64,000 bases of DNA. Origin: Mya arenaria. Taxonomy: Eukaryota; Mollusca; Bivalvia; Myida; Myidae. Location of the stretch: NCBI RefSeq assembly GCF_026914265.1, contig NC_069135.1:34791756-34855755 (forward strand), written 5' to 3'. The notes beneath the pieces are model-generated. The model had not been told where the DNA came from, ran no database searches, and saw only the letters and a list, made by a program, of their open reading frames with translations. Positions 43,068 through 55,652 of the stretch are shown piece by piece; positions within the stretch are counted from its first letter, which is position 1; each line of letters opens with the position of its first letter. The translations under genes were made by a program, and so were the position numbers.

Positions 43068-46000
43068 ATGTCTGCTGAGGGTGGCGGTCAAGTTTTATTG
43101 CCGGTTGAGGCAGAGGCTGCAGTAGAGTCATTGAAGCAATTCCCCCTGAAGGAAATAGGTGGACCAAAGTGAGTACTTTTCGTTATATTAAAGGAATTTG
43201 ATCCGTTCCCATGGTAATTATTCCAACATTTCCTCGTAAAGAAGAGATAAAAGTTTCCTTACCTTTTTTAGCAAATTTTGTTTGATTTTTACGTTATTCA
43301 GGAATTATTAAATATTAAAAGTTAAGTTTAATCTAGTTCTGGCTTCCATAACTTTAATGTTGATATTTATTTTTTTGATGTTTACAAGGCATTAAAGTTA
43401 TGGCGTAACCCCCATAGTAAAGTCAACCAGAATCAATTGAGTGTGATGATGCAATGCAATCACATGACCATGATGACGTCGATGGATTCTATTTATAGCA
43501 TCGGATTCACATTGTTCATTTAGTTGAATCCAATTGCAGTAAGGCTGTAAATACCTTTTGATAAGTAAAAACAATTTATTTATTCCAAATTTGTTATTAG
43601 TTATTTATTAATTATTCGAAATAGAAAAAATAACAGCAAAATCAACACTAGGTCACATGGGTATTTTCTGAAAATCTTGGTGACACGTGATTAAATTTGA
43701 ACACAACTATGACCTAGATAAGGAATGCTTGTAATAGGATTTATTAAAAAGCTAAATCAACTATCTTTAAAGTGTTTTTTGGTTTTGAAAATGAGTTTGT
43801 GAACTACATTTTACTTCATTAACCTAAGGATACAGCTATTTTGTCTGTACAATGCATACAAGTGAAATAACAGCGTGACATAAAAATGTCACGAATTCTG
43901 GTAGGGTTTGGATACGGCGTTCTCTTCAGCGAACACATCCAAAAAGGTAATATATAACGTGTTCGCTGAAGTTCTTTAGCTAAGTTTAATCCAGACGATT
44001 GGCAGTAATCGTTGCAAATATATTTATTATTATAATAAATAATATAAATAATTTATTTACATACTCCTCCAATAATATCACAATGAATGGTTGTAACTTA
44101 TTATGTAAAAGTGTCACTCAGCCTTTCATCCAAGAAATTTTGGTTTTGACCCCACAATAGTCAGAGTAATCTATTGGTATATGATTGATGTCTATATTTC
44201 ACCAAAGAGGTTGAGTGTTCGATCCCCACGAGCGGTAAATTCTAGATTGATTATGTGCAAATTTAGTTTTCAGTAAGAGTGGTTGATTACATGGGTCACA
44301 CTTCAAGAGTATGTGATATCAGTTGTAGATGTTATGGGCTCCTAGCCTTAATGTACTTGAGATTAAAAAGTGCCACTTTTTCTTTCACAGTTCATGAATA
44401 AACTCATTGGCTTTAAAAATATGTATATATAATCTGCATGTTTTCCAGATGGTCAGTTCAGCATGAGGTTTTGGAGAAACTGAACATGCAGGCCATACTT
44501 AATGCCTCTGCCCAGGAAGATGAGTTTGTGAAAGACTACCTCATAACCTGTGACAAGGTGAGTAAGCAGGCAGTGAATGCCTGAAGATTTCCATGAGCTC
44601 CCAATGATTGATTTCTGTGACCTTACTCATATTTCAAAATTCAGTTGCTTCATTACTGTAAAAGTAAGTAACAAAAATATCATGTAACCTCCTAAGAAGA
44701 AGTTAGTATCAATATTACAATTACCTGTGAAATAACAGAGGCACAATAATTCGCGAAAAATGAATACTTCACTTTTCCCTTACACATGACTTGTTTTTGC
44801 TTTTAATATAACATTTAGCATTATATTTTTATTGAAAGACTTTGGCATTATTTGTCTGTGACCCAGAAATTGATGTTTTTTCTCTTTTTACAGTTGTCTT
44901 TGTTGATATATGATCTCCTGGCCACAGAGGTTTGGAAGGAGAAAGTCTTCTCTGAGATTCTGGACACCGAAGACTTTGATCCCAAAACAACTTTCCCTTT
45001 GTATATGGTGGTACGTATAGATCTATGTCATGTCAACTTTGAGCCCATAACAACTTTCCCTTTGTATATGGTGGTACGTATAGATCTATGTCATGTCAAC
45101 TTTGAGCCCATAACAACTTTCCCTTTGTATATGGTTGTTACGTATAGGTCTATGTCATGTCAACTTTGAGCCCATAACAACTTTCCCCTTGTATATGTTG
45201 GTACGTATAGATCTATGTCAAGTCAACTTTGAGCCCATAACAACTTTCCCCTTGTAGATGTTGGTATGTATAGATCTATGTCAAGTCAACTTTGAGCCCA
45301 TAACAACTTTCCCCTTGTATATGGTGGTATGTATAGATCTATGTCATGTCAACTTTGAGCCCATAACAACTTTCCCCTTGTGTATGTTGATATGTATAGA
45401 TCTATGTCAAGTCAACTTTGAGCCCATAACAACTTTCCCTTTGCGTATGGTGGTACATATAAATCTATATCATGTCAACTTAGAGCCCATAAAACCCTTA
45501 TATATGGTGGTTCATTCCGAGACAAATACTATTTTTTTAATAAAAACGGTTAATCTGTGAGAGTGCAGCTTTAACATTATGATAAGCTTGTATACCCTAA
45601 AGCATGAGACTTTGAGCTTCAGCTCCCTTTGTTTGATAACTGTCTTTTTTATACAACAGCATGTTTCAAACCCCCAAAAAACACCTAAAAAATAATGCCT
45701 CAATCGTAACTGCTACAGCTCTACCATGAGGCGACTGTGATTAACCTGCTTGAGACAACCATGTTTTACCGAGAAGTGTGTGAGGCAGCAGAGGACTGTG
45801 TCCTTGACCTTGTAGACTACTGTTACAGGAAACTCACACAGCTCATAGCAAGGTATGATACATTCCTTTACCACTTTAGCTTTACTGATTGTTATAACAT
45901 TGGTTTTGATGGCGTTGTGCTAAAACTTACTTACGCCTCGGTAATTTGTAAAAATAGATAAAGATATGGCAATGAGACTTGGTACCAATCACTGTCATTG

Positions 46001-55000: not shown

Positions 55001-55652
55001 CCGAAATCTGTTTGGTTTAAAGTGTTGGCAGAGGGGGTTGGGAGTACCCCTCATGAGAATTTTCAACAATTTTGGTCCGAAATGGTGCATTTTGGGTATA
55101 TTTTATTACTTACCCCTTTTATCGAAATAAAAAGTAAACTTGGACGCTTTTAGGATCTGCTGGATCCACAAGTGTCGATCTGGTATTAATTTGAAAAAGG
55201 AGCATAATTATTAAAAACAAACTTTACTCTAAAAATGAGAATATATCTTTCTGTATGATGTGTATGAAAAGAAAAGGAAAAGAAAATGGTATCACCTCAA
55301 TATTGATATCACATCTCTTTGTCTCAAATTATCCTGATTTTGAATACAGAACAGAACATGAATTTATTTTCGTTCAAAAATTCAACATAATTACATACAA
55401 TGAACTAGTTCAAATTAATGATCCTTGATCATTGACATGAAATAATAAGTGTTCATGGATGTATGGTGATCGGTGAGTCAATACATGAAACGAAAGAAAC
55501 TTAGTATTTAAGAACACAATATGGTTTATTGTTATGAATACATTTATTACAGGGAGTGTCAAGTGACCCACTGGCAGAAACACAAGCAGGCCTGTGATCT
55601 CATGTTTGACTCTCTCAAGAAACTCAAGGAGCATGAGCAAGCCAAGGGATGA
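43068..55652 (+). CDS. ZMYND10: ZMYND10 (MYND-type zinc finger, dynein arm assembly), complete
   Basis: Thirteen exons: 43068-43168, 44449-44557, 44894-45010, 45719-45852, 47546-47630, 49002-49090, 50710-50810, 51848-51930, 52157-52246, 52394-52519, 53590-53711, 54275-54400, 55553-55652. All ends are GT-AG and phases match. The CDS is 1383 bp, 460 residues (human about 440). Conserved blocks include LNMQAILNAS, TTFPLYMV, INLLETTMFYREVCEAAED, VLDLVDYCYRKL, GTPPWSHRK and GKWKKIAKKQI. The MYND finger is at about 406-442 (CAKCGEDASKRCSRCQNEWY, then C-x3-C ... H-x3-C), with all ligands present. In animals this cytoplasmic protein works with LRRC6 and chaperones to pre-assemble axonemal dynein arms; loss causes immotile cilia. 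An acidic insert (SEESEEEKDEEVD, exon 5) sits where vertebrates differ. Tandem arrays overlap the exon 3, 5, 7 and 10 splice junctions. Confidence 0.97.
44984..45511 (+). repeat. 63-bp tandem array carrying the ZMYND10 exon 3 splice donor
   Basis: Eight full units and one partial. Each unit contains the last 27 bp or so of exon 3 (acaactttccctttgtatat-ggtg), the donor, and about 36 bp of intron (tatagatctatgtcatgtca...). Unit 1 is the real junction (GT at 45011, gtacgt). GT is kept at 45074 (gtacgt), 45137 (gttacg), 45201 (gtacgt), 45264 and 45327 (gtatgt) and 45453 (gtacat). Unit 7 has lost it (atatgt). Unit 3 is 64 bp; most others are 63. Confidence 0.95.
45509..45574. mobile_element. Repeat family D, 3' end fragment
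   Basis: ggttcattccgagacaaata ... taatctgtgagagtgcagct, then ttaa, matches the last 60 bp of 33044-33298 and 35555-35824. It abuts the end of the 63-bp array. Confidence 0.6.
46283..47425 (+). repeat. 50-bp minisatellite, about 23 copies, ZMYND10 intron 4
   Basis: The unit is gggtatatgcatgcatatca, ctgtgctaatgccgctgcaa, gaggttgtaa. The period is 50 bp, and copies are highly alike apart from ctg(a/c/g)taatg and gct/gtt variants. Each unit contains the palindrome atatgcatgcatat. Degenerate units seem to continue from 47473 to the exon 5 acceptor (tgtgttaatgcttgttgcag), which resembles tgtgctaatgccgctgcaag of the unit. Confidence 0.93.
48806..48969 (-). mobile_element. Foldback MITE family C, copy 3 (short)
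   Basis: Begins ggcctaaaaaaatacatatg with gggttaccccaccctacc inside, and ends ccctaaccaaaccatttcat, tggcc. It is shorter than the copies near 5 kb. It ends 32 bp before ZMYND10 exon 6. Confidence 0.75.
50037..50709 (+). repeat. 112-bp tandem array of ZMYND10 exon 7 pseudo-exons
   Basis: Six degenerate copies of exon 7 and its 3' splice site lie end to end in intron 6, starting at 50037, 50149, 50261, 50373, 50485 and 50597. The real exon 7 at 50710 is the seventh. Copies keep the ttttccag acceptor (the first is damaged) and gtgatgaca...gctaaacacacac. Copies 3-6 are almost identical and share an early in-frame TGA. Copies 1-2 look more exon-like but carry stops. None keeps a donor. Confidence 0.95.
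52480..53280 (+). repeat. Degenerate tandem array carrying the ZMYND10 exon 10 tail and donor
   Basis: Units of about 113-121 bp (one about 181) repeat the exon 10 end (ggaacacctgtccatgatgg, acccacctgcacccaggaga, gaggtcatac-tggaacag), the donor and gtcaaaggtc. Donor-like GT positions are 52520 (real, gtacgt), 52641 (gtacgt), 52822 and 52936 (gtaggt), 53049 (decayed) and 53167 (gtaggt). More diverged than the exon 3 and exon 7 arrays. Confidence 0.85.
52734..52752 (+). repeat. 19-base G run
   Basis: Uninterrupted G19 inside the exon 10 array of ZMYND10. Its length should be read with caution because homopolymers are error-prone. Confidence 0.85.
54029..54171 (-). mobile_element. tRNA-derived SINE, copy 1
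   Basis: Reading the minus strand, the 5' end ggttgtccggctagcgcagt contains an A-box-like tagcgcagtgg, then a B-box-like tgtttgattcc about 45 nt later. The body matches 57529-57713. The tRNA-like head does not close an acceptor stem, so it is not a tRNA gene. Lies in ZMYND10 intron 11. Confidence 0.75.
54549..54872. mobile_element. Palindromic repeat family E, copy 1
   Basis: Inverted ends ggcctcaatttcttgaaaca...aagtaccttataacagg and cctgttataagggtcttatg...ttgagaaattgggcc. A second copy is at 58574-58829. Lies in ZMYND10 intron 12. Non-coding, so probably a MITE. Confidence 0.75.

What the first reader, a model, noticed from the sequence alone, without database searches (positions are those of the whole stretch)
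43068..55652. ZMYND10 has several tandem arrays built from its own splice junctions
Within one conserved ciliary gene, arrays in introns 3, 6 and 10 have a repeat unit that contains a real exon-intron boundary plus part of the exon. The intron 4 array seems related to the exon 5 acceptor. This is unlike ordinary intronic satellites, which avoid exons. It suggests repeated local duplication across splice sites, leaving runs of decoy donors, decoy acceptors and pseudo-exons. This could be neutral replication slippage, or it could tune splicing of a dosage-sensitive gene.
Basis: seen in the sequence. Interest (0 to 1): 0.85.

Follow-up and report, generated by a model that had tools for sequence, protein, structure and literature searches.

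The report
Repeat arrays spanning clam splice junctions
In a soft-shell clam gene needed for cilia, short DNA repeats that include the exon-intron borders have multiplied into arrays of look-alike splice sites; this is a kind of repeat already known from lancelets (where it is called a 'mirage'), and here it looks like mostly neutral repeat growth rather than a splicing switch.

Summary
Tandem units carry 38 nt of exon 3 plus its donor, 92 nt of exon 7 plus its acceptor, and 59 nt of exon 10 plus its donor. The intron 4 array is intronic; its link to the exon 5 acceptor is not shown. The species is Mya arenaria. A second, inverted copy of the locus 1.17 Mb away, probably the other allele, differs in unit number at three arrays while the 13 exons keep their lengths and the protein differs by one residue. 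The kind is known: amphioxus 'mirages'. It is not special to ZMYND10: the neighbouring laminin-beta gene has two more, one with 16 acceptor copies, and a CCT gene a two-copy starter. In a sample taken without regard to arrays, straddling is no commoner than random placement predicts (1 clean plus 1 doubtful, about 3 expected). The three annotated clam proteins seen use no decoy. Best reading: neutral local tandem duplication across splice junctions, tolerated because the working copy stays joined to the rest of its exon.

The parts
43068..55652 (+). ZMYND10 gene, 13 coding exons, 460 aa
   Evidence: Spliced model with GT-AG introns; MYND finger at residues 406-442; best PDB match of the C-terminal part 2d8q, named zinc finger MYND domain containing protein 10; NCBI protein 'zinc finger MYND domain-containing protein 10-like [Mya arenaria]'
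44894..45010 (+). exon 3; its last 38 nt and the donor at 45011 form the first unit of the array
44973..45492 (+). exon 3 donor array: 63-bp unit, 8.2 copies (13.2 in copy B); 7 full extra copies, 4 of them with a GT donor scoring 1.9 or more against 2.5 for the real one
   Evidence: TRF, blastn, alignment, site scores, copy B
46296..47420 (+). intron 4 array: 50-bp unit, 22.5 copies (11.5 in copy B); intronic, no demonstrated exon content
   Evidence: genome search matched only here and in copy B
50029..50801 (+). exon 7 acceptor array: 112-bp unit, 6.8 copies by TRF (7.8 in copy B); 6 extra copies upstream, 5 with an intact AG scoring 3.2-5.7 against 5.7 for the real one; all 6 read into stop codons if included
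50710..50810 (+). exon 7; its first 92 nt are the functional last unit of the array
52461..53265 (+). exon 10 donor array: 6-7 diverged copies spaced 114-131 bp (once 181 bp) carrying up to 59 nt of exon 10; at least 3 decoy GT donors
   Evidence: blastn, alignment, site scores, spacings; not listed by TRF
52394..52519 (+). exon 10

Best explanation
These are splice-junction minisatellites ('mirages') made by ordinary local tandem duplication in a repeat-rich genome. Step 1 (inferred, with one starter case seen): a break-repair or slippage event duplicates a stretch of some tens of bases up to about 120 bp that happens to span an exon-intron border. Step 2 (geometry, read from the sequence): for a donor the extra copies fall downstream of the real donor, for an acceptor upstream of the real acceptor, so the rest of the exon stays joined to one working unit and the protein is unchanged as long as that site is used. 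Step 3 (seen for most arrays): the array then grows, shrinks and homogenises like any VNTR, so that two genomic copies carry different unit numbers over near-identical exons. Step 4 (inferred): the spliceosome uses the exon-proximal site, presumably through exon definition, and the decoys are mostly ignored. I expect no regulatory role in ZMYND10 and at most slight, allele-dependent mis-splicing.
For: Exonic sequence in tandem units at three ZMYND10 borders. The arrays recur in a second inverted copy of the locus with other unit numbers at exon 3 (8.2/13.2), intron 4 (22.5/11.5) and exon 7 (6.8/7.8), exons of equal length, 9 nt differences in 1383, one amino-acid change. In the window's exon 7 array the middle units are identical or nearly so while the edge units differ, as expected of unequal exchange. 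The kind recurs in the neighbouring laminin-beta gene (2 of 5 counted arrays). A starter case, L071: two copies identical over 39 nt at a period of 41 bp, holding a CCT acceptor plus 15 exonic nt, with two bases before the second copy that differ from those before the first, which would fit end-joining. In 50 sampled loci, 42 arrays and 1 clean plus 1 doubtful straddle, against about 3 expected from uniform placement. The three Mya ZMYND10 proteins among the best 120 of 553 database hits use the exon-proximal sites at the three array-bearing junctions. Amphioxus mirages behave the same way.
Against: In ZMYND10 plus laminin-beta, 5 of 9 arrays straddle a border where 1.9 are expected (P = 0.021), so a mild preference for splice junctions is not excluded; that figure includes a gene chosen for its arrays (laminin alone: 2 of 5, P = 0.26), and the uniform model is crude. 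Not every array varies: the laminin exon 11 array has 16 units with the same spacings in both copies, and the exon 10 array of ZMYND10 sits in introns of nearly equal length (1070 and 1054 nt). No RNA data were available, so non-use of the decoys is inferred. In copy B all 13 exon 3 units stay open in frame, which a selection story could claim; in the window the frame breaks at unit 3.
Confidence: 0.75

Rival explanations
1. Splice junctions are preferred sites of tandem duplication in this genome, for example through co-transcriptional R-loops or short AG/GT homologies, so mirages arise more often than arrays elsewhere.
For: 5 of 9 arrays in two adjacent genes straddle a border, 1.9 expected, P = 0.021; several further arrays stop within 1-28 nt of an exon.
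Against: The sample taken without regard to arrays shows no excess: 1 clean plus 1 doubtful straddle among 42 arrays, about 3 expected. Laminin alone is not significant.
Confidence: 0.15
2. The arrays are functional: decoy sites compete with the real site and tune ZMYND10 output, with array length as the dial.
For: Several decoys score as well as the real site. Inclusion from any of the 6 upstream exon 7 copies brings stop codons, which could lower protein output. Copy B's exon 3 array is an open frame through 13 units of 21 codons.
Against: Unit number differs between the two genomic copies with no matching change in the exons. The frame is broken in the window copy. The three annotated proteins seen show no decoy use. 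The same kind of array sits in an unrelated laminin gene. Primary ciliary dyskinesia is called recessive (PMC4732763, start of abstract).
Confidence: 0.07
3. The arrays are an assembly artefact.
For: Tandem arrays are hard to assemble, and the assembly does keep near-identical segment pairs.
Against: Units differ by substitutions and small indels. Two separate genomic copies carry the exon 3, intron 4, exon 7 and exon 10 repeats. The reference was built from PacBio long reads with FALCON-Unzip (PMC10663159, passages). Exact unit numbers may still be wrong.
Confidence: 0.03

Closest known systems
Amphioxus 'mirages' (Adh3, globins BflGb6 and BflGb9, TnC, PGBD5)
   Same: Minisatellite-like tandem duplication of an exon-intron border, at donors or acceptors, units of 10-160 bp, unit number differing between two haplotypes of BflGb6, regular splicing reported as undisturbed (PMC3087553 passages; PMC3902484 passage).
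   Different: Here in a bivalve mollusc; three in one gene and two in its neighbour; in laminin-beta 16 acceptor copies mostly 37 nt apart. Splicing was not tested by RT-PCR here.
Human internal tandem repeats at exon-intron borders in segmental duplications
   Same: Variable minisatellites overlapping exon-intron borders of genes (PMC2812944 passages).
   Different: The human set is of recent paralogues in which the repeat changed exon or intron structure; here the coding exons are unchanged in length between the two copies.
Intron gain by tandem genomic duplication (Rogers model)
   Same: Tandem duplication including splice-site sequence; the globin paper proposes mirages as a source of new introns.
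   Different: No new intron or exon is seen in ZMYND10; the 460-aa protein aligns without insertion at the array-bearing joins to the other mollusc and brachiopod proteins compared.
Ordinary intronic minisatellite
   Same: The 50-bp intron 4 array looks like one; copy number 22.5 against 11.5 in the two copies.
   Different: No exon content shown, so it should not be grouped with the other three.

Membership tests
mirage (splice-junction minisatellite) | Tandem units that contain an exon-intron border with exonic sequence | tested here: met
   Exons 3, 7 and 10 of ZMYND10; laminin-beta exons 3 and 11 of the partial model; not met by the intron 4 array
mirage (splice-junction minisatellite) | Either border, donor or acceptor, can be repeated | tested here: met
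   Donors: exons 3 and 10; acceptor: exon 7
mirage (splice-junction minisatellite) | Minisatellite unit size (10-160 bp in amphioxus) with length variation between haplotypes | tested here: met
   Units from 37 to about 120 bp; unit number differs between the two genomic copies at exon 3, intron 4 and exon 7, not at laminin exon 11 (16 and 16); that copy B is an allele is likely, not proven
mirage (splice-junction minisatellite) | Regular splicing is not disturbed | tested here: inconclusive
   No RNA data; 3 of 3 Mya proteins among the best 120 of 553 hits lack decoy-derived sequence at the array-bearing junctions
intron gain by tandem duplication | A new intron or exon made from the duplicate | tested here: not met
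   No insertion at the three joins relative to the five other mollusc or unnamed proteins and Lingula aligned
dispersed satellite DNA family | The unit occurs at many genomic places | tested here: not met
   Intron 4 unit: matches only at this locus and copy B (the tool warns that its word filter can miss common words). The 63-bp and 112-bp units were not searched: searches did not complete
splicing-regulatory repeat | Decoy sites alter transcript structure or level | not testable with these tools
   No RNA-seq available

The most novel reading that the evidence does not exclude
Splice-junction minisatellites are a genome-wide class in Mya arenaria, affecting on the order of one or a few percent of splice junctions and often differing between alleles. 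They would be a standing natural experiment in how the spliceosome picks one site among up to 16 near-identical neighbours, and a live source of new exons and introns, the same process described so far in lancelets.
Probability: 0.35. Interest if true: 0.7.

Novelty: new member of a known kind. Interest (0 to 1): 0.45.

Why it matters
If mirages are common in a bivalve as well as in lancelets, they are not a cephalochordate oddity but may be what happens to any polymorphic, minisatellite-rich genome. They then give many natural arrays of near-identical donor or acceptor sites in which splice-site choice, decoy use and birth of new introns can be measured allele by allele. They may also be a practical hazard for gene annotation.

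Tried and rejected
Intron 4 array as a copy of the exon 5 acceptor: tested by blastn and by local alignment against dinucleotide shuffles and against the other splice sites; not shown.

Assembly artefact: judged unlikely, see rivals.

Array as a dispersed satellite: not met for the intron 4 unit; unanswered for the others.

Splice-junction preference: P = 0.021 on two genes, but no excess in the 50-locus sample.

Rows dropped or merged before counts: overlapping TRF rows were merged by hand, the 26-bp row at 63898-63923 (12-bp period, in a laminin intron) was left out, and the arrays around the APMAP-like gene (36117-36403, 38055-38269, 41081-41694) were not counted because I made no exon model there. 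In one search only TRF rows of period 15 or more were used and neighbouring rows merged. The 50 loci are 20 of the 133 kinase matches, picked by me as short partial-domain exons and one of each near-identical pair, and the 30 best of the 61 matches; they still include near-identical pairs that I did not remove. L062 was counted by the script as a straddle but its acceptor was not located, so I call it doubtful; L056 and L057 are near-identical loci with a doubtful acceptor about 120 nt upstream of the domain match.

The 405-aa clam proteins P0002 and P0003 lack the exon 5 area; their join is not at a decoy site; not pursued.

Kinesin exons were meant to enlarge the sample, but no flanking DNA could be cut, so they served only to see near-identical hit pairs.

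Splice-site score matrices are human-like frequencies from memory. Script one search failed (a peptide core mistyped by one letter) and was rerun; one search ended with a file-writing error after its results were printed.
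Full report
What was checked. I rebuilt the gene: 13 exons from 43068 to 55652 on the + strand, all introns GT-AG, one 460-aa frame. It has a MYND finger, the best solved-structure match of its C-terminal part is 2d8q, named zinc finger MYND domain containing protein 10, and the protein database holds it as 'zinc finger MYND domain-containing protein 10-like [Mya arenaria]' on a contig of 64,373,224 bases, the length of contig C14 of the held genome. [quoted passage not shown] (That database protein has L at residue 371 and so fits copy B below; P0002 has S and fits the window.)

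The arrays. Self-blastn of every exon border against the gene gives exon-containing tandem copies at three borders. Exon 3 donor: 44973-45492, 63-bp unit, 38 exonic nt. Exon 7 acceptor: 50029-50801, 112-bp unit, 92 exonic nt. Exon 10 donor: 52461-53265, copies spaced 114-131 bp and once 181 bp, 59 exonic nt, matches of 70-83% identity over the longer stretches and up to 90% over 30 nt. The intron 4 array (46296-47420, 50 bp x 22.5) has no exon content by blastn. Its best alignment at the exon 5 acceptor (score 19, shuffle mean 13.7, p 0.037) is matched by the exon 5 donor (20) and nearly by the exon 8 donor (18), so I count it as an ordinary intronic minisatellite.

Decoys. With a simple human-like site matrix (from memory) the real exon 3 donor scores 2.5. 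Four of 7 extra copies in the window score 1.9-2.7, the other three are broken or weak; in copy B 9 of 12 extra copies have a GT donor scoring 2.1-2.5. The real exon 7 acceptor scores 5.7; 5 of 6 extra copies have an intact AG scoring 3.2-5.7, and the outermost copy has lost it. At exon 10 three decoy donors score 2.6-6.0 against 5.6 (its pattern search may miss some). Each of the 6 extra copies of exon 7 reads into a stop codon. Using an exon 3 decoy would add 21 codons per unit. That frame is broken at the third unit in the window but open through all 13 units in copy B.

A second copy. The intron 4 unit has matches at one other place in the genome, 1.17 Mb away on the same contig and inverted. 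The DNA fetched there is an inverted copy of the region; from about 33 kb of the window onward most long aligned blocks are 92-98% identical, with some at 84-90% in and before that part. Its ZMYND10 has 13 exons of the same lengths, 9 nt differences in 1383 and one amino-acid change, S371L. Introns other than 1, 3, 4 and 6 are together 98.4% identical. Unit numbers differ: 8.2 against 13.2 at exon 3, 22.5 against 11.5 in intron 4, 6.8 against 7.8 at exon 7; intron 10 is 1070 and 1054 nt, so the exon 10 array has hardly changed in length. The kinase and kinesin searches show many near-identical hit pairs 0.3-3.3 Mb apart on one contig, for example C13:22047149 and 23268291, or C3:84757807 and 85070549 on opposite strands. 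I therefore think copy B is a retained alternative haplotype rather than a paralogue. This is not proven: other near-identical pairs lie on different contigs or more than 10 Mb apart, so true duplications exist too, and the published assembly (PacBio reads, FALCON-Unzip) was passed through purge_haplotigs to remove such alleles (PMC10663159, passages).

Not only in this gene. Downstream on the other strand lies a laminin-beta gene (partial model of 26 exons in the DNA held; the last exon and a few borders are uncertain; PDB match 4aqs laminin beta-1). Of its 5 counted arrays two straddle a border. One covers exon 11 of my numbering, with a unit of mostly 37 bp made of acceptor plus 29 exonic nt: 16 copies in a row, all 16 with an AG at the place (15 extra and the real one), and 16 with the same spacings in copy B. 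The other covers its exon 3, with a 78-bp unit including the donor and 36 exonic nt, 2.9 copies. One more ends 2 nt from an exon. In 50 further loci (20 kinase exons, 30 TCP-1/CCT matches) there are 42 arrays covering 9.5% of the flanks. One cleanly straddles a border: L071, a CCT exon, two copies identical over 39 nt at a period of 41 bp, holding the acceptor and 15 exonic nt, which looks like the first step of such an array. L062 is a doubtful second. Six more lie within 30 nt of an exon, two of these in the near-identical pair L056/L057.

Is it more than chance? If arrays of the observed sizes are dropped at random into introns, allowing up to one unit to reach into an exon, ZMYND10 should show 0.88 straddling arrays and shows 3 of 4 (P = 0.034); laminin 1.0, shows 2 of 5 (P = 0.26); both together 1.88, show 5 of 9 (P = 0.021). 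ZMYND10 was picked for its arrays, so only laminin and the 50 loci are fair tests. In the 50 loci about 3.05 straddles are expected and 1-2 seen. So there is no good sign that arrays seek or avoid splice junctions. By junction: 3 of 24 in ZMYND10, 2 of 50 in the laminin model, 1 of 82 located in the sample (95% interval 0.03-6.6%).

How it most likely works. Shown: junction-spanning units; unit numbers that differ between the two genomic copies for three of the arrays; near-identical middle units and divergent edge units in the window's exon 7 array; conserved exons. Inferred: origin by break repair or slippage. In L071 the two bases before the second copy differ from those before the first, which would fit end-joining. 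Inferred: the exon-proximal site is used. The three Mya proteins seen (one of 460 aa, two of 405 aa) all show the normal exon 3/4, 6/7 and 10/11 joins, and the other proteins aligned (an unnamed one, Mactra, Dreissena, Pinctada, Mytilus, Lingula) run through these joins without insertion. The paper says the assembly was annotated by MAKER with RNA-seq, but I could not look at reads. A tuning function is unlikely, because unit number differs between copies and primary ciliary dyskinesia is a recessive disease (PMC4732763, start of abstract in the listing).

What is known. [quoted passage not shown] the authors' data suggest that they do not disturb regular splicing, and they propose them as a source of new introns (PMC3087553, passages). 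PGBD5 and troponin C in lancelets have them as well (PMC3902484, passage). Human internal tandem repeats at exon-intron borders are described in PMC2812944 (passages). The lists returned by my searches of the held open-access library (searches show only the top of longer lists) hold no title or abstract start that reports mirages in a mollusc; most subscription papers are not covered. An abalone kinase paper that came up describes a plain intronic minisatellite (PMC6905558, passages).

Verdict. A real, striking but explainable feature: a new member of a known kind in a new phylum as far as I could see, with strong hints that it is common in this genome. The regulatory reading is not supported.

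Noticed in passing
L026:432-1041 (C14:34866187-34866796): Laminin-beta exon 11 acceptor repeated 16 times (15 extra plus the real one) as a unit of mostly 37 bp (acceptor plus 29 exonic nt), all with an AG; 16 units with the same spacings in copy B. A sharper case than ZMYND10.
   Followed up: partly
L026:8398-8628 (C14:34874153-34874383): Laminin-beta exon 3 donor repeated 2.9 times as a 78-bp unit including the end of the exon.
   Followed up: partly
L071 (C12 near 65214344-65214514): Two-copy starter array: copies identical over 39 nt at a 41-bp period, holding a CCT exon acceptor and 15 exonic nt.
   Followed up: partly
C14:35970001-36050000 against the window and its downstream flank: Inverted copy of this region 1.17 Mb away, most long blocks 92-98% identical, probably a retained haplotype; many other gene hits come in near-identical pairs on the same contig, so gene counts in this assembly may be inflated.
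   Followed up: partly
43334-43983: About 650-bp dispersed repeat in ZMYND10 intron 1; 40 full-length places listed, 97-100% identical, of 1328 candidates. Missing from copy B, whose flanks meet there with a 17-nt overlap, so a recent, probably polymorphic mobile insertion.
   Followed up: partly
8537-20730: 12-kb array of a 29-bp unit, about 420 copies, 93% matches; the inverted copy has a long aligned block there too.
   Followed up: no
21349-26296: Long + strand frames (1180 and 498 codons) that look like a retrotransposon gag-pol; a reverse-transcriptase-like frame lies at 31957-33042 on the minus strand (identity by eye only).
   Followed up: no
P0002 and P0003 (405-aa ZMY10-like models of Mya): Both deposited models drop the exon 5 area with a join between the middle of exon 4 and the middle of exon 6, possibly an annotation error near the intron 4 array.
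   Followed up: no
36794-40141, minus strand: Exons that look like an APMAP/strictosidine-synthase-like gene (identity by eye).
   Followed up: no
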